Source: Theristus sp. LFF4_11
Lineage: Eukaryota > Nematoda > Chromadorea > Monhysterida > Xyalidae
DNA length: 64,000 nt
Direction: 5' to 3'
Assembly: GCA_030248135.1 (NCBI GenBank)
Contig: JASANC010002389.1
Location: 32,130-96,129, forward strand
Positions 4,689 through 62,449 of the stretch are shown in pieces. A program made the position numbers and the translations under genes. Under the pieces are notes generated by a model. It did no database searches, was not told where the DNA came from, and saw only the letters and a program-made list of their open reading frames with translations. Each line of letters starts with the position of its first letter. Position 1 is the stretch's first letter.

Positions 4689-4689
4689 G

Positions 4690-21900: not shown

Positions 21901-24879
21901 GGGCCTTTTTTTGCTTTAAAAGTTGGGCAAAAACACATTTTTATGCGTTTTCCAGTGGTTTTTTGTTTTAATTTTTAATTTTAAATGCGGATTTTTTTTA
22001 ACAAAGCTGTTTTATAACAGGCATACAACCGCTGTATCTGAATCTGTTTTGATATTTTGCAACTGACCACTTGTCCACTTAAAAAATGGGTAAAAAGTTG
22101 ATTTTTTGCTTTTTGCACACGTTTTCGTTTCACAATGAAAAAATCAAGTTAGAAACAACTTGTAATTTTAATTTTTAGTTTTCCAGGGAGGTTTTCAAAA
22201 TCGCTGAATTCGAATCTGACTTTAGATTTTTGCCCCGGGCATTTTTATTGCTCTAAAAATGGGGCAAAACACATTTTTATGCGTTTTTCAGTGGTTTTGC
22301 CCAATTTTTAAAGTAAAAAAATGCCCGGGGCAAAAATCTAAGGTCAGATTCGAATTCAGCGACTCCGAAAACCTCTCTGTAGAATTAAAAATTAAAATTA
22401 CAAATTGTTTCTAAACTGATTCTTTTACTGTGAAACGAAATAGTGTGCAAAAAGCAAAAAAAAAATCAACTTTTTACCCATTTTTTGGGTGGGCAAGTGG
22501 TCAGTTGCAAAATATCAAAACTGATTCAGATACAGCGGTTGTAAGGCTGTCATGAAACTGTTTTTTAATCAACTCTACATTTAAAACTAAAAATTAAAAC
22601 AAAAAACCACTGGAAAACGCAAAAAAATGTGTTTTTGCCTTATTTTTAGAGCAATAAAAATGCCCGGGGCAAAAATCTAAAGTCAGATTCGAATTCAGAA
22701 ATCTTGAAAACCTCCCTGGAAAACTAAAAATTAAAATTAAAAGTTGTTTCTAACTTGATTTTTTCACTGTGAAACGAAAACGTGTGCAAAAAGCAAAAAA
22801 ATCAACTTTTTACCCATTTTTTAAGTGGACAAGTGGTCAGTTGCAAAATATCAAAACAGATTCAGATACAGCGGTAGTATGGCTGTTATAAAACAGTTTT
22901 GTTAAAAAAAATCCGCACTTAAAATTAAAAATTAAAACAAAAAACCACTGGAAAACGCAGAAAAATGTGTTTTTGCCCAACTTTTAAAGCAAAAAAAACC
23001 CGGGACAAAAATCTAAGGTCAGATTCGAATTCAGCGACCCCGAAAACCTCCGTGTAGAACTAAAAATTTAAATTACAAGTTGTTTCTAACTTGATTTTTT
23101 CACTGTGAAACGAAAACGTGTGCAAAAAGCAAAAAAAATCAACTTTTTACCCATTTTTTGGGTGGGCAAGTGGTCAGTTGCAAAATATCAAAACTGATTC
23201 CGATACAGCGGTTGTAAGGCTGTTGTAAAACAGCTTTGTTAAAAAATCCGCACTTAAAATTAAAAATTAAAACCAAAAAACACTGGAAAACGCAAAAAAA
23301 TGTGTTTTTGCCCAATTTTAGGACAAAAAATGCCCGGGGCAAAAATCTAAGATCAGATTCGAATTCAGCGACCCCAAAAACCCCCCTGTAGAACCAAAAA
23401 TGAAAATCGAAAAATTGTGTTTATGAGCTCAAAAAAATGTTTTAAAAAAATAGCGTAATTTTTCAAAAAAAGTAATTTTAACTAGCGTCGTAGCGCCTCA
23501 GGGACCCCCCTTGCAAGGGCTCATTGATACAGGGCCTTAAAGAACTCCGCAAGATCTTTCACGTGAATACTGTGTGAGGTTCCAGAAACTGTGCAACTAC
23601 GAGATACGGTAGGGCTAAAAAGGTACACTTTGCGAAAAATCGCAAAAAATCGAGGGTTTTTCAACTTCCGCACCCTAAAAACAACCTTTATAGGCATAAT
23701 CAGGGGGTACTCAGGAGGTAAACCTGAAGCGCCTTGATTAGTAGAATGTCCCTGCACCCTTGGTTTGAAAACTTTCCCATGTAGCGCTAGACCCCCCCAC
23801 TCTTATTTGCAAACGGTGTTAACCTACAATGCGCGCATTGAGTCTCGGGACCAAATTAAAAGATCATGGTTTAAATGAACAAACTACGGTATACATGCCA
23901 ACATAACGGCAGCGGCGACAATTATCCGGCGCCTTGTAATCATGCATCTTGTTTTCAACGGAAAACAGACGGCACAAACACGTTGAAGTGCCACCAGAAC
24001 CAAAACCGTGAGTGTCTGGAACGTCATGGCCATGGGGTACATCACTCTAAAAAACACCTTTTTTACGTTTTTGTCTGAGACAGTTTTGTAGAAAACGCCT
24101 ACTCAACAAATTACTGAAGAAAATTGTTGAGTACAGCGGTGTTCTTCTGAGCAGCGCTATTTGGACGGCAACAAACAGCTTGTGGGTCCCTGCATGCTTA
24201 AAAGCACGGATATGACTGGCTGACGAGCAATACTGCGCCAAAGCGTTCAATGTTGCATCAACACTTTCAATTCAATTTTTTGCATTCAATTTTTCTAGAC
24301 GTTTTAAACTATGAAATTGAGAAATGTATCACAAAAGAATATATTTCAGGGCAGTTCTTGGTCGGTTTCAATATGATTCTCAAAGTTCCAAGGTTCTGAC
24401 TTCTGATAACCAATTTCGAATTTCAAACCCAATAATTCAACAACACTCGTGCTCTCCGTTCACACATTAGATTGCGCTCATCAAGTAGAGTCAAAATGCA
24501 AACTTGACGAAGAAGAGAAAACACAAAGTTAAGAATCCAGCACAGTTCTGCCTTCTGCTGACCGGAGCACACGCGGATAAAGGCGCCGCGAGAGGGACGC
24601 ACTGAATCGGTCGGCGGCCAGCGGCACCACCAGGAAGCCGAAGCTCGACACGCACAGCGCCACGTCGGCGGCGGCCAACGCGATCAGCAGCAGCGAGTTC
24701 TTGCTGGCGCGCAACTCCGGCGACAGAAACACGCCGACACTGACGCCGTTCGTCAGCACACCGAGCAGCGTCGTCGGCGCCACGAAGCCGAGGCGAATGA
24801 GCGCCTGCTCGCGTGTGTACAGCGCCGAAATGCTCGGGCACGCGCGCTCGGTCGTGTTCATTAGGACCGTTGTGGCCAT
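15997..24879 (-). CDS. FMRFamide/myosuppressin-receptor-like GPCR, fragmented by repeats
   Basis: Recognised exons on the minus strand: 24603-24879 (start ATG, an NTT glycosylation site, TM1 at residues 29-52, TM2 at 61-86), 23895-24044 (TM3, with QRVCAVCFPLK in the DRY region, and the start of TM4), 20638-20786 (end of TM4, LPRWFE, extracellular loop 2) and about 16362 down to 15997 (TM6, ACNTLAFAANLLE; TM7, NSAFAPVVYLVYNVRYR; stop). LPRWFE and CNTLAF are hallmarks of invertebrate FMRFamide-type receptors. Problems: no exon for TM5 was found, and the strongest donor of the TM3 exon (GCAT|GTATAC) leaves a phase that does not fit the next exon; GCC|GTTATG would fit. Introns are packed with satellites and transposons. 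It is either a working gene with one exon I missed or a decaying one. Confidence 0.7.
16372..16850. repeat. 13-bp minisatellite GGTGACTGCAATA
   Basis: About 36 tandem copies with rare variants (GGTAACTGCAATA, GGTGACTGAAATA). It directly abuts the acceptor of the last GPCR exon. On the minus strand three units (39 bp) encode 13 residues without a stop, so the GPCR frame runs open through the whole array. Confidence 0.95.
16998..17578. mobile_element. Fold-back element with ~150-bp inverted ends
   Basis: Left end ATATTATCTAAAAATGCGGG..., right end ...CCCGCATTTTTAGATAATAT. About 150 bp of each end match as reverse complements, including TACACACGGATACAAGTACA. The spacer holds no ORF. Located within a GPCR intron. 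Confidence 0.8.
17640..19880. repeat. 149-bp satellite
   Basis: About 15 tandem copies of a 149-bp unit containing GACGGCCGATTCGCCCGAAA, ATTCAGCATCTAGAGTTGCT and GTGATCAGCGCATTGAATTA. The first three copies are the most diverged; those from 18.2 to 19.85 kb are nearly identical. It sits inside the GPCR gene interval. Degenerate relatives trail to about 20.3 kb. Confidence 0.95.
20930..23870. mobile_element. Family B TIR element split by a palindromic insertion
   Basis: The family B left part (20930-21073, with CAATTTTGAATTCC) and right end (23819-23870, AATGCGCGCATTGAGTCTCGG) are separated exactly by the TTAA-flanked palindrome at 21074-23818. Confidence 0.7.
21074..23818. mobile_element. 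2.7-kb palindromic element with TTAA target duplication (piggyBac-like, non-autonomous)
   Basis: Flanked by TTAA at 21070-21073 and 23819-23822. Ends CACCGTTTGCAAATAAGAG and its reverse complement. The two arms of roughly 1.2 kb are near-identical inverted copies, and each arm contains about three sub-repeats of roughly 320 bp (AATTCGAATCTGA...TTTTTGCCCCGGGCA). A matching frame of about 78-88 codons occurs in both arms (21116-21382 plus, 23521-23757 minus), with no transposase motif. The TTAA duplication is the hallmark of piggyBac-type insertion. Only the target site, not a protein, supports that assignment. Confidence 0.75.
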
Positions 24880-24946
24880 GCGATGCGTGCGTGCGCGTTT
24901 GTGGATTGTTTTCTGCTCTTGCAAAACTAAAAGTACGAGCTTCACA

Positions 24947-25113
24947 CAGTCGAACTGTAAATTGTAGGGGGTCAGCTGATTGGTCGCGATTACGGCATAC
25001 ATGCTTTCTAGGCAGGCATTGCTGTGGAGGCGGAGTTTGGCTTGCACAGAAAGCATGCATACCGTAATCACCAACGAATCAGCTGATTTCCTAAAATTTA
25101 GAGTTCGACTGTA
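24947..25113. mobile_element. CAGTCGAAC-ended inverted-repeat element
   Basis: Ends CAGTCGAACTGTAAATT and AGAGTTCGACTGTA. Inner inverted motifs TCAGCTGATTGGT, TTACGG(C/T)AT(A/G)CATGC and AGGCAGGCA. It lies just upstream of the GPCR start codon. Related ends occur at 31.85-32.01 kb. Confidence 0.6.
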
Positions 25114-35492: not shown

Positions 35493-37638
35493 ATGGGCGA
35501 TGAAAGCTACGAGAAGATGGACACGGATACGGCGCGCAAGTACGCCGAGGCACAGACGCTGCGCAGACTGGCGTTCGTCGCGGTGGCGCTGAGCACGATG
35601 GCGACGTTGATGTGCGTGGTGACCGTGCCGATGCTCTACAACTACATGCAGCGGCTGCATCCGCTCATCGAGAGCGAGATTGACTTCTGCAAGGTTCGTT
35701 ACACATCGTCTTGTTGGTGTTCTTTATATTGTCGCCGTTGGTAGCGCACCATATTAGCAGCATCCATGCCGGCACGTGAGCAATGATATTTGTTCACCAC
35801 GTTCAGAACGCACCCAATATTCCAGCGCATTCTAACACTACTCAGGAGTACACTTATTTCGTATTTGGATTTCGTTACATTCTGTACACTCTTGTATTTC
35901 GTTCACGAACGTCAACATTTGGAGATCGAAATCTTGCTTTCTGTTCAGGCGAGAACAATCGATCTCTGGCGTGAGGTTGCTCGTGCATCTTCGGTCGTCG
36001 GTCCGGCCGCCCATCGACCGCTGGCTGCCGCCGAGCATCCACGTCAGCGGCGTTACGGCGGCGGCGGCGGCTACGGCGTTGCACCCGAGGAACAACTGGC
36101 GCAATGGGCTGCCTACGAACAGGCACAGGCACAGGCGAACGCTCACGCGCACGCACAGGCGAATGCACAGGCGCACGCACAGGCACAGGCACAGGCGCAC
36201 GCACAGGCACAGGCACAGGCGCACGCCCAGGCACAGGCACAGGCACAGGCACAGGCTCAGGCACAAGCGCACTCAGTCTTCCATCGTCCGGAAGCGGCAG
36301 CCGCTGCTGCGGCGCATTTGGGCGCCCGCTGGCCGCACGCGGAGCTGCCCGTTGCTCCGCCCACTCGACCGGCATTCGGCCCCGACGGCCATCCGTTGCC
36401 GTTGCCCGCACACCACGCGGCGATTGCTCCCGCACATGGCCTTCCGCCACAACATTTGCCGCCGCCTCACCACGAACTGCCGCCACCGCACCCGCAGCCG
36501 CACCATCCTCAGCCACGACCGCACCACGCCGTGCCCGTTTTCCATCATCAACCGCCGCCTCCACCACCCCCTCCTCCACCTCCACCACCTCCACCACCAC
36601 CACCACTGTTCGTCGCGCCTCCCGTCTGTAAGTTCAGTTGGCGATTGTTGCAACATTTGGGGAATGATCTTCAATTTTTTGTATTTTTTTCAAAACGAAT
36701 CGTTTTTGTTCCAATTCAGGCTGCACCTGCCAGCAAGGACCCTCGGGACCACCAGGTCCACCGGGTCGGCCGGGTCGAAACGGTGTGGACGGGAAACCGG
36801 GCCGCAGCGGGCGACCGGGCAGCGACGGTGCCCCGGGAAGTTGGAACCCGTGCCAGCTGCATGCTGACTGCGTGAACTGTCCGCCCGCACCGCCCGGACC
36901 TCCGGGTCGACCGGGCACTCCGGGCCGCAAGGGTAGCCCGGGGAGGCCCGCACCGCCAGCAGATGAGCTGCCGCCTCCTGAGCCAGGCAAGCCTGGCGCG
37001 CCCGGTGAACCCGGCAAAGCGGGACGACCTGGTCCGAAGGTGGGCAGCCGCAATTGTTGTGTTACCGAAGAAACTCTGATTTTGCGAACTGTATGTTTTC
37101 GTTCAGCTAAGATCTTGTCAATGAACCTTGCAAAACTGATTTTTGCTCATGTTGTTGAAGGAGAACAGATGACACGTTTCAGCTACATAAACGATTGCTG
37201 ATTACAGTGCAATCAAGAATTCACTGAGTGCTTTTTGAATAATTTTTTCAGGGAGTACCTGGCAAGGACGGCCGCCGTGTGCCCGGCAAGGGGCCGCAAG
37301 GCAGTCCTGGACAACCAGGACAACCTGGTCAGTGCAAGTGTTCTCACGATGTGATTGCAAATTATACAATCTGCTTTTGAAAAAATTGGTAAACGCTCAA
37401 TATATAGAATCAAAACAGAGCACGCAGCATATTTCCAGGAGAGAAAGGCGACCCTGGCTCGCCGGGTCTGGACGGCGGTCATCATGAGCGGGGCGAACAG
37501 GGCCCGCCCGGAGACGACGGCAGCCCGGGCAGGCCCGGCACACCAGGACGCCCGGGTGCGCCCGGACGCAGCGGCACCCCCGGCGGCAGTGGCGGCTGCC
37601 ACCATTGTCCGCCGCCGCGAACCGGCCCTGGATATTAG
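35493..37638 (+). CDS. Nematode cuticle collagen with Ala/Gln/His- and Pro-rich insert
   Basis: Five exons, 35493-35693, 35949-36627, 36720-37039, 37252-37327 and 37439-37638, join in phase to 491 residues. Residues 1-67 are the cuticle-collagen N-terminal domain: a cytosolic stretch, then a membrane/signal-anchor helix ([23 protein letters not shown]) and a short juxtamembrane region. RQRR at 99-102 fits the subtilisin-like processing site of this family. Residues about 125-178 are [12 protein letters not shown] repeats, about 230-290 are His/Pro-rich with an 18-residue proline run, then CCTCQQ and interrupted Gly-X-Y blocks separated by Cys clusters ([14 protein letters not shown]) and ending [13 protein letters not shown]. 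Known role: trimerises and is cross-linked into the cuticle. The 200-residue non-collagenous insert between the processing site and the Gly-X-Y region is unusual. Confidence 0.92.
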
Positions 37639-38732: not shown

Positions 38733-41700
38733 TCACGTTTTATAACTGCGACAACGACAGCAACACAACATTGTTAATAACGCTCTGGCTCGGGCACTAC
38801 CGGAAGTGTGAAACAAGAGAACACAGCTGACCAATGCAGCATTGGACAACGAAGCAAACGAATAGAGGGCAACGTCGCTGTAGTGAACGGCCGTGACGCC
38901 AATAAGCCACATAATAAAAGCCAATAGGGGCAGCAGAATGCCACCTTTTGAGTTGACCAGAGCTGATGTCGTCTGCGATCGGTTGGCAGCAACGTGATCT
39001 GGGTAGTCGATCATGCCTGGAAATAACTGGTGCTACAGTACCTTTGTTAGAACCTGTCAGACAAAGACGACACCTTCGTGGACAGAGGAGGCACGAATAA
39101 TTTTGGTCAACTTACTTAACAGTGGTTGCGTGCTTGCATTTTAGCTGCACTGAACTGACGAACATTAGATCCGATCAAAAATTGGTGTTCTCTGAAAAAA
39201 ACTGTTGCACCGGGGTCCTCGACGCCATTCAGAAAGCGGGCTTCACTAAGAGAGAAACTTTTCACTGCTTCTATTCTGATTTCAGAAATGTTCTTTTCTA
39301 TTGTCTTTTTATGTTCACAGGCAGGCCAGTCGATATCGGCTTTGAAGCCAAAATTGCATAAATCATATATGAAACCAACCGGTGGCCTCTGAGAGCACGA
39401 CCGTGAGCACGGTCATGAGCGCGATTGGCGCCAATTCGAACGCCACATTCGGCGCCGACGCGCAGTTCAGCCAGCAGGTGCGCGCGTGCGTGTACGAGTG
39501 ACGCCAGCCGGCGACAGCTGGCACGACGAACGCCAACGGCGCGAGCGCACTGAGCGTCACGAGCGTGCGGCGCGTCAGTGGAGGGCGCGACGGACAGACG
39601 TTCGTGTAGACGGTGTAGTTGTGCAGCGCCTCCAGTAGAGCGCTCGTGAAGTAGACGAGAAACAGATAGTGCAGGATGACGGCGACCACCGTGCACTGGT
39701 CGGTCGACAGTGGCGCCGGCGGCCGCGCAGCCGGCGCGAAGCAGAACGAGTCGAGGCCGAACAGGGTGCCGGTGCGCGCCGGCAGGATGAGCAGTTGCGC
39801 CGCCAGCAAACTGCCCTGCAAATCGTCCTTTTTTATGTCGTTTTCTTTCAGTTCTGCGACTCAGTGCGTTTTTGCAGACGTTGAATGGAGCTCAGTTTCA
39901 TGCGCTTGATGCGCCAATTCAAAATAGCCCCAGTGACTCAATCGTTTCTCAGGGACACGGGTCGTTTCACCAATTTTGAATTCCCTCGTCAGCCATGAAA
40001 CTGCTTTCCTCCATGTGTGCATTGAGTCACAGAACCAAGAGCAATGATAAGACAATGAGCAAAATGCACGATGTCTTTTTTCAATTTTCAATTTTAAAGT
40101 TTAATGCCACCAGTTGGTGCTCGGGTATTTTCTCACTCGTTTTTGGGCGAGTAAACGATCACTCATGAATTTTTCCTTCTTAAACGGCATTCATGAAGCA
40201 GTATTTGGTGACGCGTGTGTTAAAACATAGCTACGTACATATTATCTTTTGTTTTGGTATTCGTATTCATTTCGTATTCATGCATGCAACGATTCGGCCG
40301 CATACAAGCTAATGTTTCACCCGGTTTAAAACAAGAACCCTTAGTTGCGTGCTGAAATCAATGTTTTTGTGTGTTTTGCTCTGTCATTCGTGTGCAGGTA
40401 AATGAATTTCTCTTAAATTTTGCACAAATCTAAGCTGTACTTTCTTGAACAACTGTCTTAAATTTCATTGAATATGGTTCTACGCAACTCGAGAAATAAC
40501 GCGTCAAACACCGACCCACTACTTCTGAAACATCCTGTAGTTTTGACGCTGTTCCGTATTCCTAAACCGCAAAGCAAATGCTCGCCCACCTCCTGCACCA
40601 TGTGATAGGTACGTTCAATGCTGAAATCGGCAATGAAGACGAACAAAGCGAGCAACAGCGAGAGCGCCACGATCAGATACAAGCTGGAGAGCGTGTACGA
40701 GCCGAGACTGATGCTTTTCGCCACTTGGTTGCCTCCTTCGACGCATCGCCGTTCCTGCACAGGCGGTGAACAGTGAACCTCAGGTGCTCGCTGCGACCAA
40801 GACTTCTCGCCTGAAATCATATCATGAAAGTAGCATATTTTGAATTCCATAAATTGGCTTCATATCAACAGTTTTGGATGTCAACGTTCAAGTTTATAAT
40901 TCGCAACAAAAAATTGTCTTGTCATTGACCACGATTATATCAAAACAGCTGTCTTCAAATCGTCCAAACGGCAGTGTTTTACCAGTGCAGCGGACAGAAG
41001 TGGCGATTTCTGTTGATTCGGCCGTCAAAACGTAACCGGCAACACACTGGATTGCCACTGTTCCACCAACTGCGGTATGAGTGCTCGAGTTGAACTGGGC
41101 TGCCGTTGGTGACGGTATGACGTCACTAAATGACGTGATCGTGGCGTTGTCGCCGGCGCTCAGCGGTTTCTCGCAGCAGGCCGGCGGTGCGGTGTCTGGA
41201 GCCGAATTGATTTGTTAATTTTTTTTGAGATTGGCCACACACAGACTGGCCACAACGTGTTGCTGAAACCAATCAGCAAGTTAGAATTCAAATGCACTAT
41301 AATAACTTCATAAACCCGCACCAATTCTGCAGACAAACGGTGCTGCATAGCTGCGGTCAACGGATCGCAAGCCGTTCCTGCATTGAACCGCAGTCATCAG
41401 TTCGTTCGTGGTTGCGAGATTTGCGGGTTGACCAGCGTCCCAGAGATCTTTTGCCGAGAACGCCGTGTGCGCGCCGCACGGATTGCGCCACGCCCAATGG
41501 CCCCCGGTGGCCTCGTCCTGTTGGTCAACTTGGAAGCCGGCAACGTGGAAACAGTCGATTGAAGTGCCCTGGAAGCGAACAAATGAACAGATGCAACTGG
41601 GTGCTTTCATGGCACGGGCCAATCCAGAAAAGTGTACTGAACACCGTCAAGTAAGCGCCCATAGAGATCATTTCTGTCCTTAAAATGCTCGCACACCTTA

Positions 41701-44700
41701 CGGTGGGGGCTCTTCTCGTTCGTGTACACCGGGACAAAGTGCTACAGCAGGTGTCATATGAGAAGAAAAGTTAGGCTTCGGTTTAGGCTTAGGCTTTGTA
41801 CCACAGCTTTCGTTCCACTCACCACAAATTCTCTCATAATCGACTTCACGGGAAAGTCGTCCAAAACCACTAATTCGCCGACGAAACCAAGTGAGCCGTC
41901 TCGACATTGCTTCTGCGCTTCCACCGCCGTCGCACTGGCAGACACCAGATGGAAACAGCCAATTTCTGCATAGTGCGGATCCAAATGGCGGCAGATGCCC
42001 CCGTTCGGGCAACTTGCTGGCGAACATTTTGCTGGGGGTCCTGTAGAGGTTTCATTCAATTGTTATGTTGGTTCGAAAGTCAACCACAGACAACTGTGCA
42101 AATTCATCAAACTGCACAAAGTTTGGGCACTCCACGCAGGTGCACCAATCAGAAAGTCTCATAAAATTGCAAGACAAAGATATTTCTCGTGATATTTGCA
42201 GGGTGCTGTTTTCAAAAGCGTGGAGCGGAACTCTTTTCGATCGGCGACTATGTCGACCGAACTGACCATACTGCAGATGCGTTTGTACGGTCCGGCACAG
42301 GGCATGTCATTGATGCCGTCTTTCCAGGTGCACAGACAGTGCTGTACACCGTTGACGTTGTTCGGTTGGCCCGTCATCCACGGCACCATGCCTGCGGTGG
42401 TGCCGCCGGAATTCAACGGGAACTCCCATTTCTCGTTCGTCCGTGGTGCGTGCCACTGCCAGTGACCGTGCGGCTCCATTGCGCTGTCGTACTGCGCAGC
42501 GCCGAGGAACACGTGCTGTGAGTACCAACCCAGCGGAACCTAAACGGCAGCAACAAGGCGGGAAATGTTAGGCTGCTATGAATACATGGTAGGAATTTGA
42601 ATGCGCTTCAATATGGATGGCCCTTGAAGAATAAATCTCTACTTTTTGGAATCTCAGGCATGAAGCTGTTGACCTTCAATAAGAAGCAGCGTTTTACCAA
42701 GACGTTGTTCTTGATGTGTGCCGCAATCGCTTTCGTGTCGACCACGGCCAGCTGCCCATCACTGTGCTGGCCACCGTCAATGCCAGGCACCGGCGCAGTG
42801 TGACACTTCGTCTGTGCTGTCTGCCAGTTGGTCGTGTCAGACATCGCCACATAGCACACGCCATTTAGTGGCGTTGCCAGTTGCGTCGTCAGTACTCCGC
42901 CACAAGAGTACACTTTAGTGCACGAAATCTGTGTGCGTGCGTCAAAAAAGCAGTTTACTTGATTGGATTGTGTGCGCACGAACATGTTCCTGTACATGTG
43001 CATTCTTCTTCTGCGTGCAATGTTTCGGTTGATTTTGGAATAATGGTTCGTGTAATGTAACGTGATAAAATTCAGACACGATGATCGATTTGTTTCAGTA
43101 AACATTTGGTGTTTGGTGTGACTAAGTTTTTTGGCGTGCCCCATCAATGCATCAGCCGTTCCATTTACCGTGCTAGCATCGACAGTCCACGCGCGATTCT
43201 CGCCGCAGGTGATTGTTTTCGATGTTTTCGTGAGATCACCGGTGATGCGATGTCCTGCGTTACAGCGTATGGTGGCTATGGCGCCGTGCAGCGCGTGCGT
43301 GCTCGTGTTGATGTGCAGGCCGGCGTCGCCGCTGTGGCTGGCCACGAACGCGTTCGCACCAGCCGACGCCGGCTTCGCACAGCAGCGGTCGGGCGCTTCA
43401 TCTGGCAGAATCGATGAACTGAATGCGGAGCTCTCAATTTGACTGATCGTCCAAATCGATCAATATGCGGTGATGATTCGTCAAGAGCGATTGATTGTTC
43501 AATAGAGAAAGAGACAATTCGGTGTTTCGGAAATTCGCACAGACTTTAGAAAGCGCCACTCTAATATGGCGAATAGTAACTGTAACTGTAATCGCCACTT
43601 TGCGAAGACACCAATAGCCACTTTGTCAAGCGTGAAACGTTTGCGTTGCAAATGACCACACTTGGCTCACCAAAACGACAGACGTACGGCAAGCCAGCGG
43701 CTCCATTCAGGTCGTTCGCGGTCGCTGAGTTCACGTAGAACTGCACCGAGTGCTCGTTGCCGCCCCAGTCGTTCGGTTCGTTCGGATTCCAGAACGCCGG
43801 ATTGAACGGCAGAATCTGGCCGCACGGATTGTACCAGTACCAGTTTCCAGCCGGCTCGTCGTCTTGCGTCAGCTGCTTCGCGCCCAGGTAGACGCTGTTG
43901 CCGCCGTGTTCGTTCTGTTGGATAATGCGCACGCAAATGGAAACGGACAATGGAAACACCGAGACTACAAAGTTTTTGCGTTGCGTTACTGTTCTGAAAA
44001 AGTAGCTTTCACGTTGTTAAGAATAAGTACCGTAATTATGGGTCCCGTATCTCATGCTGTCTTAACAATTTTAACGGAGCGTCCTGCATTCTTGCAAAAT
44101 AAAATCAATGAATGAAGTACCGTTCAACATCATATTCTTCGAGCCATTCTTCATGCCAAACTTAATGCCAACATGTTATTTTACATGCCAAAATTTATGC
44201 CATGCTATTTTTGTGCAAAAAATTGATGGTGGTTAAAAAACTGCCGATGCGTTGCATACACGCGAACCTGAGATGCTCAGGTGGATGCGTTTTCAGGCCA
44301 ATATACCAGCATGGCCACCGCGACCAACCAATTGGTGGTGATGACGCAATTCGGTGATCACGGTGGAGGCGCTGCTATTGGTCTGAAGGCGCTTCCAAGC
44401 GCATCTTTTATTATAATCCAAGTTCATAATTCAGAGACCATGTATTATCTTTTATTTTGGTCCTGCAACTCAATGCGCCGCCCATAGATAGGTAAACAGC
44501 TGCATGCAGGACGCGGGAATTCAAAATTGGTAAAGTGATCCGAGTCCTCTACATAGGGCGAATCACTTAGGCGACTTGAATTGCCGCATAAAGATTGAAA
44601 CTAGTTTTCTTTTTACGTCTGCACACGCATTCAGTCGCGGAACCGAAAAAAATGACATTAGTCTGACGGGGCTTTTTTCAGCCATTGATTTTCATCACAA

Positions 44701-45107
44701 AAAAGTTTTTCATTTTTAAAAAAAATGAAACGATTTAAAAAACGAAATGGAAAACTTGGGTGAATAATACGAAGCAACCGACCACAAAACTTTGCACTGC
44801 CGTCTGCAGGTCGACCGTCGTCAACATGGCCAGCTCACCGATGCCGCCGTGCGTGCCGTCCATGCAGTTCGTGGCAGCCTCACGAGAAGTTGTTTTTGTA
44901 AATTTCAAATGGAACGGGTGTAAGATTTCCAAAGTTATACAGAAACTGGTAAACAATATAATTCCAAACGCTCTGAGAACATTTTGCGACGAGCCTGATA
45001 GTCAGCAGTGGCGGTCGCCTCGTAGTGAAAGCAGCCGTGTGCGGTGTTGGCCCTGTTGATGAAGCGGCACACGCCGGCCGGGCACGCGCTGGCGCAGACG
45101 CCGAACG
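38733..45107 (-). CDS. Adhesion-type (7tm_2) receptor with C-type lectin and sushi-like ectodomain, 5' end not found
   Basis: Twelve exons on the minus strand: 44995-45107, 44783-44878, 43671-43914, 43169-43401, 42698-42928, 42272-42515, 41823-42040, 41322-41568, 40983-41195, 40590-40810, 39380-39815, 38733-39016. Phases close throughout, giving 926 codons. Order: lectin 1 (NPNEPNDWGG), sushi-like 1 (CCAKPASAGANA), lectin 2 (GVCYVAMSD...; TGQPNNVNG), lectin 3 (GCFHLVSASATA; HWAWRNPCG), sushi-like 2 (CCEKPLSAGDNA...CTGEKSWSQRAPEVHC), then seven helices. TM3 CTVVAVILHYLFLVYF...LLEALHNY, the loop ARTCWLN and TM7 YSFASLSNAALVSCVLLFH are adhesion-GPCR signatures. No GPS cleavage motif is visible before TM1. 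The lectin exons have equal phases and near-equal lengths (244, 244, 247 bp), so they arose by duplication. The signal peptide exon lies upstream of 45107 and was not found. The first exon would need a GC donor at 44994. Likely a plasma-membrane receptor binding a glycan or glycoprotein. Confidence 0.82.
39853..40045. mobile_element. TIR element, family B, in receptor intron
   Basis: CTGCGACTCAGTGCG...CCAATTTTGAATTCCC...TGTGCATTGAGTCACAGAACC, matching the other family B copies. It starts about 40 bp upstream (in gene direction) of the TM2 exon acceptor. Confidence 0.7.
44440..44668. mobile_element. TIR element, family B, in receptor intron
   Basis: TTATCTTTTATTTTGGTCCT at the left, GGAATTCAAAATTGG inside, CACGCATTCAGTCGCGGAACC at the right. 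It lies between the second and third lectin exons of the adhesion-type receptor. Confidence 0.75.
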
Positions 45108-45328: not shown

Positions 45329-47227
45329 TCTATAATACTAAGATAGTAACTGTGTATGTAAGTCAGGTCCGTTCCGCTACGTTGATTGGCTATTAAAATT
45401 TTCAAGTTTGAGCCAATTTTGCTATTTATGTCATTTAAGTCATCATCAGCTGAATACTCATACTCCATTTTCTAATGACAATGCAAAGTTCAAGTTGTCA
45501 TTCCACATGACTTTAGTCATCATGATGCCTTTTGCTCAAGAGCGACAACAAACAAGCGAGACAATCGTAAGAATTGCAAGGACTCCATTGTAGACGATGG
45601 AGTTTTTTCACAAAAAACGAGTTTTTAAAACAATCGCTTGCAAGTTGATCGCTCTTTTCGCAAGGTAGACTTTTTATAAAGCCGGTGTTTACAACGAGTA
45701 TTTAGAAAATCGTTGCTTTTTCCTTCATTTGTTTTTATCATAGAAAATGCGTCACTTAGGATAGAAAAGCCACATAACAAAACAAAAGCGACCGTTTTAC
45801 ACAATGGGTACTCAGAAACGTGTTGCTTTTTGTTGCACTCAATCAAAAAGAACTGGCTTAGGTTAGGGTAAGCGGGGAAAAGAAGTAAACATTCAAAACA
45901 AAAGCGGGAGCTTTAAGTGCTACGGGTGTTCAGTAAAATGTAGAAAATTGTTGCTTTTTCCTTCATTTGTTTTTTTTTATCATAGAAAATGCATCACTTA
46001 GGATAGAAAAGCTACATAACAAAACAAAAGCGACCGTTTTACACAATGGGTACTCAGAAACGTGTTGCTTTTTGTTGCACTCGATCAAAAAGAACTGGCT
46101 TAGGTTAGAGTAAGCGGGGAAAAGAAGTAAACATTCAAAACAAAAGCGGGAGCTTTGCTACGGATATTCAGTAAAATGTTGCTGTTTTGTCATTTCCATT
46201 CTATCAAAAATCCTTGGCTAAGGTTAGGGTTGAAAATAAGAGCAGTAAACGTACCACACAAAAGTGGCTGTTTTGCAGCGAATATTCAGAAAAGTTTTGC
46301 ATTTTTCGTCATTTAAACTTTAAAAGGCTTGGCTTAGGTGAGCTTTGCTACAGGTATTCAGTAAAATGTTGCTGTTTTGTCATTTCCATTCTATCAAAAA
46401 TCCTTGGCTAAGGTTAGGGTTAAAGGTAAGAGTAGTAAACATACCACACAAAAGTGGCCGTTTTGCAGCGAATATTCAGAAATTTTTTGCATTTTTCGTC
46501 ATTTAAACTTTAAAAACCTTAGCTTAGGTTAGAGTAAGCGGGAAAAAGAAGCAACTTATCAAAACGAAAGTTGGCGTTTTGCAACAATTGTTCAGAAGTG
46601 TTGCCTTTTTGACATTTACACTCTAAAAGGCCTGGCTTAGGTTAGGGTAAGCGGGTAAAAAACCATTACCAAGTCAAAAGCGGGTGCTTTCCAATGGGTA
46701 TTTAGAACAGTGTTGCCTATTCAGAAATGACAGCTGCCTGAAGCAGATTGCTTTTCTTAAACCTGTATTTTAAACTGGAACAAAAACTTAAACCGGTATC
46801 AGTTAATTGTTGTTAACCAAACGACATTGTTTTTTTTATAATTTTTTTAAAAGGAATGGCGATTGAACAACATGTGACGACATTGAAAAGCTAACCAAAC
46901 AAGATTAATTTTAAAACTTTAAGCGGGAATGGCTGTTAATTGATGCTGATCAAAGGAGATTGTTTTTTTGATACTTTAAACGGGAAGGACAGTGGAATGC
47001 AACTGATTAGAAAAGAATGAAAGGACAAATAAGCGACATTGAAAAGCTAATAAATGCGAGAATTGATTTTGATACTTTAATAGGGAATGGCAGTTGTTTG
47101 TTGCTGATTAAAAAGGTTGCGGATTTTGAGTCCGCGTCGTGGGCAAGGTCAAAAGGGGAAAACCAACTCAAAAATAATAGTTGTATTTATCAGCTAACCG
47201 TGCCGTAGGCACGGGTCAATTTGCTAG
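45329..47227 (+). mobile_element. Helitron (non-autonomous), copy A
   Basis: Begins TCTATAATACTAAGATAG after an A. Ends with the hairpin CCGTGCCGTAGGCACGG then GTCAATTTGCTAG and is followed by T. TC start, CTAG end, 3' hairpin and A/T insertion site are the Helitron hallmarks. 1.9 kb. The inside holds degenerate ~130-bp modules, each containing GGCTTAGGTTAGGGTAAGCG. No Rep/helicase frame is present. Confidence 0.8.
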
Positions 47228-47639: not shown

Positions 47640-48793
47640 CTTGTATACACAGAAAATTGCGATTGTATACACTCGCAAAACACCGGGTCCCTTGTGGCTT
47701 TATTGCCCGGGATGGTTGTTTTTGTGAGATTTTACTACCTAGGTTCGCTGATGTTTTGCCCAGACTATAAGATCTGTCTGTGGTAAAACACCTTCGGCAG
47801 TTCTGCCTGGTGTCCGTCGCATTGACGAGCCAGGGGGCACCGCGGTATGCGTCTACCTGGCGAAACCGCAAACAGCGAACTTCATGTATTGTATACACTC
47901 GCAAAACACCGGGTCCCTTGTGGCTTTATTGCCCGGGATGGTTGTTTTTGTGAGATTTTACTACCTAGGTTCGCTGATGTTTTGCCCAGACTATAAGATC
48001 TGTCTGTGGTAAAACACCTTCGGCAGTTCTGCCTGGTGTCCGTCGCACTGACGAGCCAGGGGGCACCGCGGTATGCGTCTACCTGGCGAAACCGCAAACA
48101 GCGAACTTCATGTATTGTATACACTCGCAAAACACCGGATCCCTTGTGGCTTTATTGCCCGGGATGGTTGTTTTTGTGAGATTTTACTACCTAGGTTCGC
48201 TGATGTTTTGCCCAGACTATAAGATCTGTCTGTGGTAAAACACCTTCGGCAGTTCTGCCTGGTGTCCGTCGCACTGACGAGCCAGGGGGGCACCGCGGTA
48301 TGCGTCTACCTGGCGAAACCGCAAACAGCGAACTTCATGGTATTGTATACACTCGCAAAACACCGGGTCCCTTGTGGCTTTATTGCCCGGGATGGTTGTT
48401 TTTGTGAGATTTTACTACCTAGGTTCGCTGATGTTTTGCCCAGACTATAAGATCTGTCTGTGGTAAAACACCTTCGTCAGTTCTGCCTGGTGTCCGTCGC
48501 ACTGACGAGCCAGGGGGCACCGCGGTATGCGTCTACCTGGCGAAACCGCAACCAGCGAACTTCATGTATTGTATACACTCGCAAAACACCGGGTCCCTTG
48601 TGGCTTTATTGCCCGGGATGGTTGTTTTTGTGAGATTTTACTACCTAGGTTCGCTGATGTTTTGCCCAGACTATAAGATCTGTCTGTGGTAAAACACCTT
48701 CGGCAGTTCTGCCTGGTGTCCGTCGCACTGACGAGCCAGGGGGCACCGCGGTATGCGTCTACCTGGCGAAACCGCAAACAGCGAACTTCATGT
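47640..48793 (+). repeat. Five tandem 226-bp units inside a Helitron
   Basis: Units start at GTATACACTCGC (47665, 47891, 48117, 48345, 48571) and are more than 95% alike. Each contains GGCAGTTCTGCC (a hairpin) and, in copies 2-5, CTGACGA-GCCAGG-(21 nt)-CCTGGC-GAAA, with TTGACGA in copy 1. The minus strand reads an 82-codon frame in each unit, starting MRVYTIHE, which is probably incidental. Confidence 0.95.
48048..48097 (+). ncRNA. Hammerhead-ribozyme-like core (candidate), repeated in units 2-5
   Basis: CTGACGA (48048-48054) followed by GCCAGG, a 21-nt loop, CCTGGC and GAAA (48088-48091): the conserved catalytic core with the G10.1-C11.1 closing pair and a perfect 6-bp stem II. Same core at 48274, 48502 and 48728. 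The cognate cleavage strand GCGGTA|TGCG, able to pair with the flanking CGCA and ACCGC, is present but sits in the stem II loop, which is not the usual topology. It is therefore a candidate only. Confidence 0.35.
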
Positions 48794-50421: not shown

Positions 50422-51499
50422 TCAACAGCGGCCGAATCGCTCGTCCGACAGATCACCGCAGTCGTTGTCGCCGTCGCACTCCCAGCTGCCCGGGATGCAA
50501 CGTCCCGATCGACCAACAGGACTCGCGCATCGGAAGCCGCTGCCCGAACAAACTGAAAGCACAAAGTACGCACAGTATTATCGCTGCTTTTGGTAAAAAG
50601 GTAAGGTCGGCATTGTCAGTGTCAAAATAAGTGTTTTAATATAAGTGTACGGTATGGCCGGTTAAACATGGCAGCTTTTTTCAGGGTGCAAGGAGCGCGC
50701 GAATTTTGAATGAAAGAAAAAAGACGTTCAGAGGGTATTCTGTTCATTCTTTATCCCTTGTACACATGATTGGGAATTACGTTGGCTTTTTGAAAAAGAC
50801 ACTTCCAACTCCTAGTCTGCGGCTGATCCCGCCTTGATGGCCTGCCTCATTTATTCGGCCATACTGTATCCGGGCGCAAAAAAACAGAATCAATGAACTC
50901 ACATCCGCATCCACGTCCGTAGCGCTCGTCCGAGTTGTCTCCGCAGTCGTTGTCGTCATCGCAGACCCAGCTGTTCGGGATGTTGCGCGAGCCATTGTGA
51001 CAACGGAACGCTGAAGAAAATGTAAACAGAAGCCTGGCGCAAAAAAGCGACAATGGCGTTTCGCCGGTGCAAATTCCAATCAGCGCTGATTGGTTGATTG
51101 TTTAGCATAATTATGTAATATCTTTTATTTTTGTCCCGCGTCTCAACGCGCGAATAGATGGGTAAGCAAGTCTCATGCACGACGCGCGAATTCAAAAAAA
51201 TTGGCAAAGGGATCCGAGTCCCCTAAATATGGCCGGGTCACTTAGGCTGTTCTGAATTACCACTTACAGATTGAAACCTTTCACGTCCACAACCGCATTG
51301 AGTAGCAGGTCTTAAAGAAAAGATAATAGGAATAGGAATAGGACTGTGTTGCGTCTACATGCGCCAGCTTCCGGCATTGTGGCGAATCAACACTTTACAC
51401 GAATCAAAACAAAACGACACGACACTACACATGCCGCATACCGAAGGTGCGCTCCAACGAGACGAGCACAACGATGGCGATGATCAGCTTGAAGTGCAT
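50422..51499 (-). CDS. Small secreted protein with two LDL-receptor class A modules
   Basis: Three exons on the minus strand, 51442-51499, 50903-51010 and 50422-50552, join in phase to 98 residues. [20 protein letters not shown] is a signal peptide. Exon 2 encodes [21 protein letters not shown]...[13 protein letters not shown], a LDLa module lacking its first Cys. Exon 3 encodes a second module ([28 protein letters not shown]) ending FGRC-stop. The Ca-binding acidic cluster (DxDNDCGDxSDE) is complete in both. Known for the module: Ca-dependent ligand binding. As a free two-module protein it may be an extracellular ligand or decoy; this is inference. One exon per module suggests exon duplication. 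A family A element lies in the second intron. Confidence 0.8.
50648..50868. mobile_element. TA-flanked inverted-repeat element, family A, copy 3
   Basis: Ends TACGGTATGGCCGGTTAAAC and (inverted) TACAGTATGGCCGAATAAAT; 221 bp, shorter inside than the other two. In the intron of the LDLa gene. Confidence 0.85.
51116..51333. mobile_element. TIR element, family B, in LDLa intron
   Basis: TAATATCTTTTATTTTTGTCCCG...ACAACCGCATTGAGTAGC...AAAGAAAAGATAAT, with GCGAATTCAAAAAAATTGGC inside. In the first intron of the LDLa gene. Confidence 0.75.
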
Positions 51500-52586: not shown

Positions 52587-55500
52587 TCAAAAATTATCGT
52601 GCGGAGAGCCAAAGTATTTGTAATGCGGCCCATGATACGGTGGCGGGTTGCTGTCATGACAGCTGGCATTGACAGCGTCAAACTCTTCCGACACTACCGC
52701 CGGTCTCACGATGCCATTTCTGGCGTGATAGTTTGGTCGAAACTGGTGTGTGACGGAGCGAAATGGCGGATAGATGACACCAGTGAGACTAGCACCGTTG
52801 ATGTTGTGCGACATTGTCCACGGCGGTGACTGCAAAACATCGTCATTGTTTCCGTGGCGATTTATGCGATTTCGATGGTCAAAACACGGAAAGTCCTGTG
52901 CAAAATAATCGCTTTCCGATGAACTTGTTGAGTCTATGAATCGGCCCGTCCGATCAGGAGCCCCAGGCGCCATCGGCGTCTTCATCCCGTGAGGCGAAAG
53001 CGACCAATTATTATTTGTGTACGCACGTCGCCGTGGCCGCTGTTTCCTCAGGCGTTTTGCTTTGTGCTCTTTCTGCGTCTGCTGTTTTCGTTTTCGCCGC
53101 TTCGCGCAGAACATCTTCGCTGATTCGTAGCCGACCTTGAAGAGCGTCACTAGACTCGGCCCGAGCCAGAGGCCGAACAGGCCACCGATGTTCGCCAGGA
53201 AATTGTTCAACGTCATCGCGTACTCCTGCGCAATTCCATTGCGATGTATCCTCGGTTTTTCCTTATTTTTAGATTGAAGTTTCAGGTTTTGGTGTATTCT
53301 TTTTCCATAGTCTGGTGCCGCCAATCAGCGGACTGTGTTCAACTTTCCAACCACGAACAGACCCACCTCTTCAATACTGACGTATTCCAACAACGGATAA
53401 AAGATATCAATGAGTATTTTGTCTTTTTGCCGTGACGCTTTGAAATACGATTGATAACGGTTTTTCAGTTGATCATCTGAAAAAAAATTCATTGATTTCT
53501 GACAAGTTCTCAGCATTCAAATTCAAACGGGGCCGGTTCAAATTTGCTCCAAAAAACATCACCATGAACTAGATCTTCGATCAACGCCGCTGTGAGAACC
53601 GCTCGCTTCGACCGATTTTGAGCTGAAGTTGCATTTTCAACAAACTCAATGAAATTTGGCGGCATCGGAAAGTCATGGAAATCTATTGGTGTTTCCTGGC
53701 GAGATTTGGTGGCGATTTCTGGTTGATTGCTATTCAGATTCTGACGGATATTTTGATCAATTTGCGAATTTCTGCTTTTAGAAGTCTCCAAAACATTGAT
53801 TATTCTCTCAGTATCAGTGCCGTTTTTCAGCTCAATTTCATCATTGTCACGCAGTTTTTCCCGCTCACTAGTGTTTGAATTGCCGCCCATTTTGGCGACC
53901 ACGCCAGGTAGATCAGTGAAACTTGGTGACGCCGACGGTTCAAATGTGAACTGATCATAATTTGAATACAACTGTTCCGAATCGTCGTTGGCCGCATTAT
54001 TTATTACTGGTGTAAATGGCGGGAAAATTCGATTTTGATTATCGTTGAAATTGGCGAAACTGTGGTCACGTGACTCGGCGGCAAACGCTCGTGACGGGAA
54101 CATCGTGTCGCTGAAAATGGCCGTGTATTGACTGTGCGCGCACGGGGCAAGACATGACGCGAGACAAGTGCTGTAATTGAAAGTAAAGTGAAGTGTATAC
54201 GAGCAAAACAATTGTGATGAACAAACAAAATCTGAAAACAGCACATTATCACTTTCCATTTGCAGGAGGGGCTGTTCGAATAGTCATTTAAGGTATGCGA
54301 GTTTTTCAAACGATGCTTTTCGGTAAATTGTTCTATTGCTCGTTGGACACATCAAACCGAAAGTTATTTCCACAAATTAGCTACGGATATAAAAGAATTT
54401 GAGTTGGTACGTCCTTATTTCAAATAGAACCAATGCGCAAGCCGAATTTCAACGCAGCAAATCAGTGCACACACACATCGCATAAATAACCACGACACAT
54501 TCGCACACCTTGCCGTCTCGTCAGCACCGTCATAGCCGCAATTTGTCATTTCATCCGGTGTACAGGGTGGCCGAGATATGTCGATTCGAACGAATCGGCT
54601 ATCGGCTGGCGCCACACACCGACAACGAGCAAGAATGGACGCGTACGCACAATCGAGCTGGCACGTTGACAACGAATATGAGAGTGCGCTGATGTTGAAT
54701 ACCTGCGTTGCTAAACAGAATCCGTTCAACATTAAGCAGCACAACCAAATGTTGCTTCTGAAAATTACCGACCTCTTGCGTAGCTGCCAGTTGCAGCTGT
54801 ACAAAATTGTTGAGCTGCGTTCTGATTAAAAAAGTTGCAGAAAAATTCGCTCATTAAAACGAATGAATGCAGCCAAAGCCTTTGAAGCTTCAAATTGCTA
54901 AGAAATGCAAAAATAGTCAAGTAGGTATCCACATCCAGCTGTTGACGCGTTGAATGCTGATGCAGCACATGTACAGTGTATGTACAACGACATCTTTAGT
55001 CAACAGTATGTTCCACACATTGTTGAGCAAAATTTGTGAACATTGTTTTTCAAAAAAGTGTCGTCAACTTTTTTAAATTTACATACGTTCATTTGAAACC
55101 GCTTCTGTTCGCGTTCATCCAAGCATCGCTTTCGACCTCGCAAGCCGCTCCACCAAGGCAACGGCCGTTCAAACTGTCGCAGCGTGAAGTGTCGCAGTCG
55201 CATCAGTGCTTTCGTGTATGTCCCCGGTTGAAGCATCATCGACGTATCGCTGCCACTGAGCTCACGGCGCCCGGGGTCCAGTAGGCTTACGTGTACTGCG
55301 TCATAAGGTGTCTAAAATGGGAAAACCGTAACACAAAAACATTTTTTTTGAATCGCCGTTTTTTGAGTGACTGCGAACGTGCGAAACACGCACTATTTTA
55401 AAAGCTCGACCTACCTTTTATTGACTGTACCTTTTAACCCTTTGAAATTAGATTTTTTGAAGAGCCCTTAAGAAATCCATTATTTATTGAGTTTCAAGAA

Positions 55501-60287: not shown

Positions 60288-61701
60288 TGGGGAAAAAATT
60301 TCTGAGAAACGAACCATTTTCTGATGATCAGCATCAGGTATTTCGGTCAAGGTGTTTGGAAAGTCAAATGGAATTCGCATTGAAACTTTATTTGTGCCTT
60401 GCGACATTTTTGTGCATCGAACGGCTGGAACAGATGTCTTTAAACAGGGTACACATTGAATGGCAAAAAGATTGAACAGCCAAAAAACGCAAGTAAAAAA
60501 AGACAAACCAATGAAATTCAGATTGACTGAACAAATGTAAAAAGTCGAATATCAAAATTTCAATTGTTTCTTTTGCAAAAATTTGGAAGTTAACAAAGCA
60601 TGCATTTCTTGAACACAACTTTTTCAGTTCGAAAAAGACCGTGAGCCTGTGACGTCTTCGGCTGACTTTGACTCAAAAGCAAATTGCGACCAAGAATGAC
60701 AATGAATTCGTGCTTGTATCTTTGACATGAACCTTTTAAATTTGGAACGAAATTGTACTTTAGAACTTTTGACCTTTGAATTTTAGAAGATAAAAATCCA
60801 AAAATAGCTTTGTTTTGAAGTCTTCTTTGTTTAACTAAGAGCCATTCATGAAATAGTTGGTAGCAATGCATAGTCAATATGTTCATGAAAAAATTCATGC
60901 GATTTCTGTTGCAAATTCATAACTGCAGACTCTTTTGAACGAGGGTTCAAGATTGATGTCGCTTATTATTCGTGACTGAATCATGAAGTTGGTTCAGAGG
61001 ATCAGAAAGGATCAGAAAGGTTCAGAAGACAAAGTCACCGTCATGTGAAAAGTCTTTTGTGCTAACTGAAGCGACATAGAATAAGGTACAGTGGCGGCCA
61101 AAAGTTTGGAAACCCCATGCGCGCGCTTGTGCGTGGTGGTATATGCGTGCTTTTATTGTGCGTCTCTCCCCAACACATGCTAGTTTTGTTTTTGTGAACA
61201 CAACAGTTGCTTGTTCCAAAAATCAAAAAATATTTGCTTACCGTATGTGCATAGTAATAACGAAAAAATGCGCGATCTACAGCGCACGCAGGGGTTTCCA
61301 AACTTTTGACCACCACATATAGCATCTTGTGTCGCGGTTCGTGCGCAATTATAAATCTGTGCCTTATCTCTGTTTATGCAGTTCTGTCCGCAAGCAATAA
61401 CGGTCTTCTGCTATGAAAAGCAAGAAATCTCATTAAAAATATAAAATAATGGACCAGTTCATAATAAGTATCTAGATACATACAATCTCTAGCTGGACTA
61501 GACGTTAATAAAATGCCTACGCGTTCAAAAACGGGATAAAACGCACCAGTTGCAATCTGTAGAGTGGTCCAAAAGTAGTGGGTACAACTTTGAATCGCTC
61601 TAACTCGCCAACAGTTAGACCGTTTAAGTGTGTGACTGAAAACTAGTGGTAATTGGTACATTTTTGAATTTCAACTCATTGAAAGTTGAACATTCGTGAT
61701 A
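60288..61701. other. Intergenic sequence upstream of the class A GPCR
   Basis: No gene seen. Contains the Tc1-type element at 61089-61317. Confidence 0.45.
61089..61317. mobile_element. Tc1-type MITE
   Basis: Flanked by TA. Ends CAGTGGCGGCCAAAAGTTTGG and, inverted, CCAAACTTTTGACCACCACA, about 28 bp of good match. CAGTG..GGCCAAAAGT closely resembles the ends of Tc1-family transposons. 229 bp, no coding capacity. Confidence 0.88.

Positions 61702-62416: not shown

Positions 62417-62449
<33 letters not shown>

What the first reader, a model, noticed from the sequence alone, without database searches (positions are those of the whole stretch)
38733..45107. Adhesion-type seven-helix receptor with lectin-lectin-sushi ectodomain and no visible GPS
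Twelve exons join without a phase error into three C-type lectin domains, two sushi-like modules of a shared type (CC-KP-SAG-NA) and a 7tm_2 bundle. The adhesion receptors I know from C. elegans (latrophilins, flamingo) do not have this architecture, and the GPS autocleavage site expected before TM1 is absent. Equal exon phases show that lectin and sushi exons were duplicated as cassettes. A lectin-type ligand-sensing GPCR in a nematode would be notable.
Basis: partly seen in the sequence, partly recalled or inferred. Interest (0 to 1): 0.75.

Follow-up and report, generated by a model that had tools for sequence, protein, structure and literature searches.

The report
Lectin-headed adhesion-type receptor lacking GAIN
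A worm-like genome encodes a cell-surface receptor with lectin-type modules outside and an adhesion-receptor-type seven-helix bundle in the membrane, without the self-cutting domain that nearly all such receptors carry, and it has at least seven relatives in that genome with differing outer parts.

Summary
On the minus strand 13 exons (45107-38733) join in frame into CTLD1-sushi1-CTLD2-CTLD3-sushi2-7TM (967 aa, open at the 5' end); one of 12 donors is GC. A signal-peptide exon probably lies at 51499-51442. The helices are 7tm_2 (1.2e-10) and match only adhesion GPCRs among solved structures (14 of 14 hits). No GPS or GAIN reaches E<=10; 29 residues and a 172-bp intron leave no room for GAIN. 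The 7TM has at least seven relatives in the genome (33-44% identity), with sushi arrays, a CTLD plus nine EGF, or other EGF repeats upstream; in C2072 EGF and TM1 share one open frame. So this is a family of GAIN-less adhesion-type receptors with exchanged outer modules. CTLD1 keeps an EPN..E..ND sugar-site pattern. Outer-module scores are modest. Transcripts, phylum and orthologues elsewhere were not established.

The parts
51442..51499 (-). probable 5' exon: signal peptide MHFKLIIAIVVLVSLERTF + split codon (A on joining)
   Evidence: ATG, 11-residue core of mean hydropathy 3.5, donor GTATGC in phase 1 as exon 45107 needs; the only such site on either strand of the 64 kb at criteria that were tightened after the site was first seen. 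An intron of 6334 bases would follow.
44995..45107 (-). CTLD1 exon a
   Evidence: frame and likeness to CTLD3; donor is GC, not GT
44783..44878 (-). CTLD1 exon b
   Evidence: ends at the same phase-0 point as CTLD2a and CTLD3a
43671..43914 (-). CTLD1 exon c, with EPN...GNEH...ND (Ca2+/sugar-site pattern)
   Evidence: aligns with the langerin EPN/NEH stretch
43169..43401 (-). sushi 1
   Evidence: Pfam Sushi 2.8e-4 as a piece, model
42698..42928 (-). end of sushi 1 and CTLD2 exon a
42272..42539 (-). CTLD2 exon b (QPN, both inner cysteines kept)
   Evidence: (15.1 bits, under cut-off)
41823..42040 (-). CTLD3 exon a
41643..41741 (-). CTLD3 exon b (insert peculiar to CTLD3)
   Evidence: open in frame, GT-AG both sides; no homology support of its own
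41322..41568 (-). CTLD3 exon c (QPA: sugar-site pattern lost)
40983..41195 (-). sushi 2, first three cysteines
   Evidence: likeness to sushi 1 5e-11
40590..40810 (-). end of sushi 2 (W...C), 29-residue linker, TM1
   Evidence: the Pfam sushi match (0.011, under cut-off) runs across the junction to profile position 56/56; linker length; TM1 conserved in paralogues
39380..39815 (-). TM2-TM5 with CWLN in ECL2
   Evidence: paralogues at 41-59% identity over the matched stretch; Pfam 7tm_2
38733..39016 (-). TM6-TM7, short Cys-rich C-terminus, stop
   Evidence: paralogues; the join SEATG|MIDYP matches paralogue C454, uninterrupted there (SEATGMVEYP)

Best explanation
A single-gene, apparently intact cell-surface receptor: signal peptide, three C-type-lectin-like domains and two sushi modules outside, then a 29-residue linker and a class B2 (adhesion-type) seven-helix bundle. 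It has no GAIN domain, so it cannot be self-cleaved at a GPS nor use a GAIN-buried tethered agonist. It is one of at least eight receptors in this genome that share the 7TM but differ in outer modules (sushi arrays, EGF repeats, CTLDs). Shown by sequence: architecture, lack of GPS, family, open frames. Inferred: CTLD1 binds a Ca2+-held mannose-type glycan or glycoprotein (EPN, E, ND kept); CTLD2, CTLD3 and the sushi modules act as further contacts or spacers; binding or pulling on the ectodomain is passed straight through the sushi 2-linker unit to the helices, which signal through a G protein.
For: Model in phase over 13 exons. 7tm_2 1.2e-10, no GPS/GAIN at E<=10. Against solved structures the single 7TM matches only adhesion GPCRs (14 of 14, best ADGRD1 2.9e-10); the 8-row family profile 21 of 22, the other being GLP2R. 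Seven further 7TM places, grouped 94/97 (just under the tool's mark of 95) apart from a latrophilin-like receptor and C1714/C2529. 29 invariant columns incl. C103, C176-W177 in 8 rows joined by eye. In C2072 an EGF module (Pfam EGF 1e-4, 22.9 bits, cut-off 21.5) and TM1 lie in one 158-codon open frame, so outer modules abut TM1 without GAIN. Module counts on the gene strand: C1090 19 sushi + 1 EGF, C3047 13 sushi + 1 EGF and 2 sushi in the next stretch, C454 9 EGF, C2098 4 EGF, C2072 3 EGF, C1003 2 sushi; none on the other strand. C454 CTLD half 23.7 bits, over cut-off. Sugar-site pattern. Signal peptide.
Against: No transcript, protein or ligand data. One GC donor (44994), CAG|GCTCGT, not a good GC-AG consensus, so exon CTLD1a could be mis-bounded. 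CTLD1 lacks both inner cysteines; CTLD2 has QPN and CTLD3 QPA. The whole-protein scan shows no Sushi at E<=10 and Lectin_C just under its cut-off; by pieces only sushi1 passes. Protein-collection searches found no relative (7,997 candidates scored; 8,000), though I do not know how well animals are covered there. C3255 showed no outer module (its contig starts just upstream; an EGF-type match of 0.045); C1003 showed 2 sushi but none with the earlier profiles. That all modules upstream of a paralogue's TM1 belong to one gene is inferred.
Confidence: 0.66

Rival explanations
1. Two neighbouring genes, a secreted lectin/sushi protein and a bare 7TM receptor, were wrongly joined.
For: Exon joins rest on sequence alone; no transcript data. 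The intron 40589-39816 is 774 bases. The sushi2 Pfam match is weak (0.011).
Against: The sushi2 match runs from exon 41195-40983 into the TM1 exon up to the profile end; that intron is 172 bp. Outer modules abut TM1 in paralogues, in C2072 in the same open frame.
Confidence: 0.06
2. A canonical adhesion GPCR whose GAIN/GPS is too diverged to be seen.
For: GAIN sequence is poorly conserved (general knowledge); PMC13197933 (passage) calls GAIN near universal in the class.
Against: Only 29 residues separate the last sushi cysteine from TM1; the Pfam GPS model alone has 45 positions. No GPS at E<=10, while 9 places elsewhere in the genome pass the cut-off.
Confidence: 0.03
3. A working adhesion or scavenger protein whose 7TM is mainly an anchor, or a receptor for a protein ligand; no glycan sensing.
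For: CTLDs can bind ligands other than sugars (PMC7308585, passage); CTLD2 and CTLD3 lack EPN and CTLD1 its inner disulfide.
Against: 7TM positions are kept among paralogues incl. CW in ECL2 and FHxxGxxxAR after TM7; CTLD1 and the C454 CTLD show EPN, E and ND.
Confidence: 0.3
4. A recently decaying gene.
For: One non-GT donor.
Against: 2.9 kb open without stop or frameshift, G+C contrast, the 29 invariant 7TM columns.
Confidence: 0.06

Closest known systems
Bursaphelenchus xylophilus Bxy|Bu_11124 (PMC9085898, passages read)
   Same: CTLDs (two) joined to a latrophilin-like class B2 7TM in a nematode
   Different: has a GPS; the passage names no sushi module for it; its sequence was not compared here
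Adhesion GPCRs ADGRD1, ADGRE5 (CD97), ADGRL (solved structures)
   Same: 7TM type: best sequence matches; ADGRE5 also has EGF repeats (recalled)
   Different: they carry GAIN/GPS and no C-type lectin domain (recalled)
Eutherian ADGRA1
   Same: named in PMC13197933 (passage) as the exception without GAIN among adhesion GPCRs
   Different: its ectodomain is short (recalled); here a long modular ectodomain is kept
C. elegans LAT-1, LAT-2, FMI-1
   Same: adhesion GPCRs of a nematode; PMC13197933 (passage) says C. elegans has these three
   Different: other outer domains and a GPS (recalled); the latrophilin-like receptor of this genome is 25% identical in the 7TM
Amphioxus adhesion GPCRs with Lectin_C (PMC2246102, passages)
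   Same: C-type lectin domain in an adhesion GPCR ectodomain
   Different: another phylum; the paper says many of its adhesion GPCRs have GPS

Membership tests
Adhesion GPCR (class B2) | 7tm_2 helices nearer to adhesion than to secretin receptors | tested here: met
   Pfam 7tm_2 1.2e-10; 14 of 14 and 21 of 22 solved-structure matches are adhesion GPCRs
Adhesion GPCR (class B2) | GAIN domain with GPS next to TM1 | tested here: not met
   none at E<=10; 29-residue linker, 172-bp intron; GPS found elsewhere in the genome
Adhesion GPCR (class B2) | long modular ectodomain | tested here: met
   about 700 residues, three CTLD and two sushi, with modest scores
Adhesion GPCR (class B2) | TM3-ECL2 cysteine pair, CW motif in ECL2 (recalled as typical) | tested here: met
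   C103, C176, W177 invariant in 8 of 8 rows
Adhesion GPCR (class B2) | G-protein signalling | not testable with these tools
   no functional data
Latrophilin | RBL/olfactomedin/HormR ectodomain (recalled) and GPS | tested here: not met
   Pfam lists only 7tm_2, Lectin_C and DUF3165 at E<=10
[quoted passage not shown]
   Lectin_C 2.5e-4, but 22.2 bits against a cut-off of 22.6; CTLD1 matches langerin at 4e-4; CTLD3 only by likeness to CTLD1
Sugar-binding C-type lectin | EPN/QPD, E, ND residues of the Ca2+ site (recalled rule) | tested here: inconclusive
   CTLD1 EPN/E/ND kept but inner cysteines lost; CTLD2 QPN; CTLD3 QPA
Nematode gene | phylum of the genome | tested here: inconclusive
   collagen and DEG/ENaC neighbours fit; SL1 RNA not found (no control rang either); rRNA and cuticle-collagen searches did not complete

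The most novel reading that the evidence does not exclude
A lineage of adhesion-type receptors that dropped GAIN altogether yet kept and diversified large ectodomains, so that glycan or microbe recognition by swappable lectin, sushi and EGF modules is passed to the helices through a short conserved juxtamembrane unit (in most relatives L[TS][TS]C, then MASQTxSSxSL into TM1) that replaces the tethered agonist; a receptor set for environment or immunity sensing.
Probability: 0.3. Interest if true: 0.8.

Novelty: new variant of a known kind. Interest (0 to 1): 0.58.

Why it matters
PMC13197933 (passages read) calls GAIN the only outer element found in nearly all adhesion GPCRs, eutherian ADGRA1 being the exception, and credits C. 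elegans with three such receptors. A set of at least eight receptors of this 7TM type without GAIN next to TM1, but with long exchanged ectodomains, would give a natural test of whether an adhesion-type bundle can be driven by its ectodomain without autoproteolysis or a GAIN-buried agonist. It also offers lectin-bearing GPCR candidates for glycan or microbe sensing.

Tried and rejected
Protein searches of the 5.8-billion set with the single sushi2+7TM part and the 8-row profile gave nothing, so no orthologue in another species is in hand. Paper searches for a nematode receptor of this type listed, as far as titles, abstracts and the passages I opened show, only the Bursaphelenchus case. A recalled C. 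elegans lead, F47C12.1, was searched: one paper lists it as 'notch family'; the other hit proved to be F47C12.10 in a list. I recall F47C12.1 as a modular 7TM protein but could not check that. Passages of PMC6208332, PMC12716839 and PMC3534327 were read and gave no nearer precedent. Organism: SL1 negative without a ringing control; SSU rRNA and cuticle-collagen searches unanswered. I considered that the GPS-bearing loci C545 and C2015 belong to the same family: the 7TM-exon search does not list them; they were not put in the tree. C1714 and C2529, with a Lectin_C match each and no GPS match on their contigs, group apart (97/94): probably a second, separately built lectin-type receptor pair; not followed further.

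Weak points of my own work: the tree has 11 rows, 1 of 8 inner branches starred, 6 open (drawn open under the family's own fork, which has 94/97) and a very long latrophilin-like row. Paralogue 7TM rows were joined by eye across introns, edges not verified, several rows incomplete.
Full report
What is there. The window is bases 32130-96129 of contig C1538 in a 159-Mb assembly of 3,744 contigs. On the minus strand I joined 13 exons from 45107 to 38733. They give 967 residues without a stop, open at the 5' end. Acceptors are AG in 13 of 13 cases; donors are GT in 11 of 12, the first being GC. That GC donor is chosen because it gives 16 residues between the two cysteines there, as in CTLD2 and CTLD3; its consensus is poor, so this border is the least certain.

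Order of parts. CTLD1, sushi 1, CTLD2, CTLD3, sushi 2, 29-residue linker, seven helices, short cysteine-rich tail. Pfam on the whole protein at E<=10 lists 7tm_2 at 1.2e-10 (41.5 bits, cut-off 20.6), Lectin_C at 2.5e-4 with two stretches (22.2 bits, just under the cut-off of 22.6) and DUF3165 (0.031, 15.1 bits, cut-off 25); it lists no GPS, no GAIN and also no Sushi. By pieces, sushi 1 passes its cut-off (21.7 against 20.7), sushi 2 does not (16.6), CTLD1 and CTLD2 do not (17.1, 15.1 against 22.6), CTLD3 gets no Pfam match. CTLD3 and sushi 2 are therefore named by likeness to CTLD1 (3.5e-8, 2.8e-5) and sushi 1 (5e-11) within the gene. The genome-wide Lectin_C and Sushi searches, exon by exon and best candidates only, do not list C1538.

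Exon phases. Introns between modules are phase 1, save the one in the end of sushi 1 before CTLD2 (phase 0; the like intron in sushi 2 is phase 1). Each CTLD is cut at the same place by a phase-0 intron (3 of 3); CTLD1 and CTLD3 have one more phase-0 intron each. Phase alone does not tell these two apart.

One gene, not two. Sushi 2 has its first three cysteines in exon 41195-40983 and its W...C end in the TM1 exon; the (weak) Pfam match runs over the junction to profile position 56 of 56. That intron is 172 bases. In the paralogue on C2072 an EGF module over its Pfam cut-off and TM1 lie in one open frame of 158 codons. By eye, an EGF-type end (GTHCE; GVHCE) lies in the TM1 frame in C454 and C3255 too; Pfam gives only 0.045 for the latter. 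The TM5-TM6 join SEATG|MIDYP is the same as the uninterrupted SEATGMVEYP of C454.

Signal peptide. Scanning the minus strand above the first lectin exon for ATG-led hydrophobic starts that end in a phase-1 donor gave seven starts, one with a strong core and a good donor, 51499-51442 (sequence). Joined, it reads ...LERTFA then FGVCASAC. With tightened criteria it is the only such site on both strands of the whole window; the criteria were set after seeing it. The intron would be 6,334 bases and hold tandem repeats. I treat it as probable.

Which receptor class. The single 7TM part matches 14 distinct solved sequences at E<=10, all adhesion GPCRs, best ADGRD1 at 2.9e-10. The 8-row profile matches 22 at E<=0.01, of which 21 are adhesion GPCRs (best ADGRE5, 5.1e-15) and one GLP2R (4.5e-4). 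Seven of the eight rows match Pfam 7tm_2. So the bundle is adhesion-type.

No GAIN. From the last sushi cysteine to TM1 are 29 residues. The Pfam GPS model is 45 positions long. In the same genome GPS is seen over its cut-off at 9 places (12 at E<=1; some probably haplotype doubles), one beside a latrophilin-like 7TM on C2567, none on C1538. Absence here is thus not a failure of the search.

A family. The TM2-TM5 exon finds itself and seven other places: C3047 46%, C454 43%, C1003 42%, C1090 44%, C2072 41%, C2098 42%, C3255 59% over the stretch matched (13 candidates scored). Over the joined 7TM the identity to this gene is 33-44%. The eight group together with 94/97 support, which the tool does not star (95 needed), apart from C1714/C2529 and the latrophilin-like C2567 (11 rows, most inner branches unresolved). 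Outer modules counted with profiles cut from the loci themselves, gene strand / other strand: C1090 19 sushi and 1 EGF / 0; C3047 13 sushi and 1 EGF, with 2 sushi more in the adjoining stretch / 0; C454 9 EGF / 0; C2098 4 EGF / 0; C2072 3 EGF / 0; C1003 2 sushi / 0; C3255 none / 0; this gene 2 sushi and 2 CTLD halves, the latter being the seeds themselves / 0. The profiles were trained on some of these modules, so the counts are not independent; the empty other strand is a control. An earlier run with flawed seeds gave 20 sushi for C1090, 8 EGF for C454 and none for C1003. The C454 CTLD half passes Pfam (23.7 bits, cut-off 22.6). Upstream DNA was fetched for each paralogue only in part, and that all modules there belong to one gene is inferred. 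None of these seven contigs is in the GPS list.

Shared linker. Of the eight rows, C454, C3047, C2072 and C3255 have L(T/S)(T/S)C with that cysteine after 6 residues from the last module's cysteine, and C2098 has LTSC at an unmeasured distance; this gene has a cysteine after 8 residues and no LTTC; the C1003 and C1090 rows begin too late to tell. Before TM1 the consensus is MASQTLSSxSL.

Sugar site. CTLD1 has EPN, then E in GNEH, then ND in ANDLN; its two inner cysteines are both missing. The best solved match is langerin (4e-4), aligned over FWxPxEPNxxGxNEH. CTLD2 has QPN with ND and inner cysteines; CTLD3 has QPA. The C454 CTLD reads EPN...NEDC...WND. That these residues make a Ca2+/mannose site is recalled knowledge. 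Sugar binding is thus plausible for CTLD1, doubtful for CTLD2, unlikely for CTLD3.

Mechanism. Best reading: ligand or cell contact at the lectin end, passed directly to the helices over sushi 2 and the linker, without cleavage into two chains. The last step is inference. Whether the linker acts as an uncleaved agonist or the ectodomain itself leans on the helices cannot be told from sequence.

What is known. PMC9085898 (passages) describes a Bursaphelenchus xylophilus protein with two CTLDs, a GPS and a latrophilin-like 7TM. PMC2246102 (passages) reports C-type lectin domains in amphioxus adhesion GPCRs. PMC13197933 (passages; only part of its text is held) lists LAT-1, LAT-2 and FMI-1 as the three C. 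elegans adhesion GPCRs and names eutherian ADGRA1 as the exception without GAIN. In my paper searches I saw no report of GAIN-less lectin/sushi/EGF receptors of this kind in nematodes; I saw listings and passages, not whole papers, and subscription journals are mostly not held. So I rate it a new variant of adhesion GPCR, not a new kind of system.

Limits. No expression data, no named organism, no orthologue outside this genome.

Noticed in passing
36668-37201 (+): Collagen-type open frame (Pfam Collagen 1.3e-12) downstream of the receptor gene, on the other strand; looks by eye like a cuticle collagen.
   Followed up: partly
52587-53324 (-), perhaps on to about 58000: C-terminal exon of a DEG/ENaC channel (Pfam ASC 9.8e-7); further open frames up to 57.9 kb look like the same gene by eye.
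   Followed up: partly
47662-48793: Five near-identical 226-base tandem copies (98%) in the presumed first intron, with two further 2-copy arrays at 45703-46529.
   Followed up: no
3049-4871: Tandem repeat with long open frames on both strands (AGHVSRARVGAGHLSWHVLGP type).
   Followed up: no
15997-16972 (-): Tandem repeat coding SHLLQSPIAVTYC-like units in three frames, one running into a stretch that looks by eye like the end of a class A GPCR.
   Followed up: no
24491-25113 (-) and 61690-63672 (+): Open frames that look by eye like class A GPCR helices; not tested.
   Followed up: no
L027 (C1714), L028 (C2529): A second receptor pair: Lectin_C match each, by eye alternating CTLD and sushi-like exons (the one sushi-like frame tested got no Pfam match), 7TM 72% alike and 20-28% to the present family, no GPS match on their contigs.
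   Followed up: partly
L030 (C545), L029 (C2015): Receptor loci with a GPS over the cut-off; C545 reads CTCVCTHTTNYALRM. Sushi and Lectin_C matches lie on the same strand of C545 some 20 kb upstream, sushi arrays on C2015.
   Followed up: partly
contigs C771/C3669 and C1819/C2805: Pairs of contigs with identical family scores: probably uncollapsed haplotypes in the assembly.
   Followed up: no
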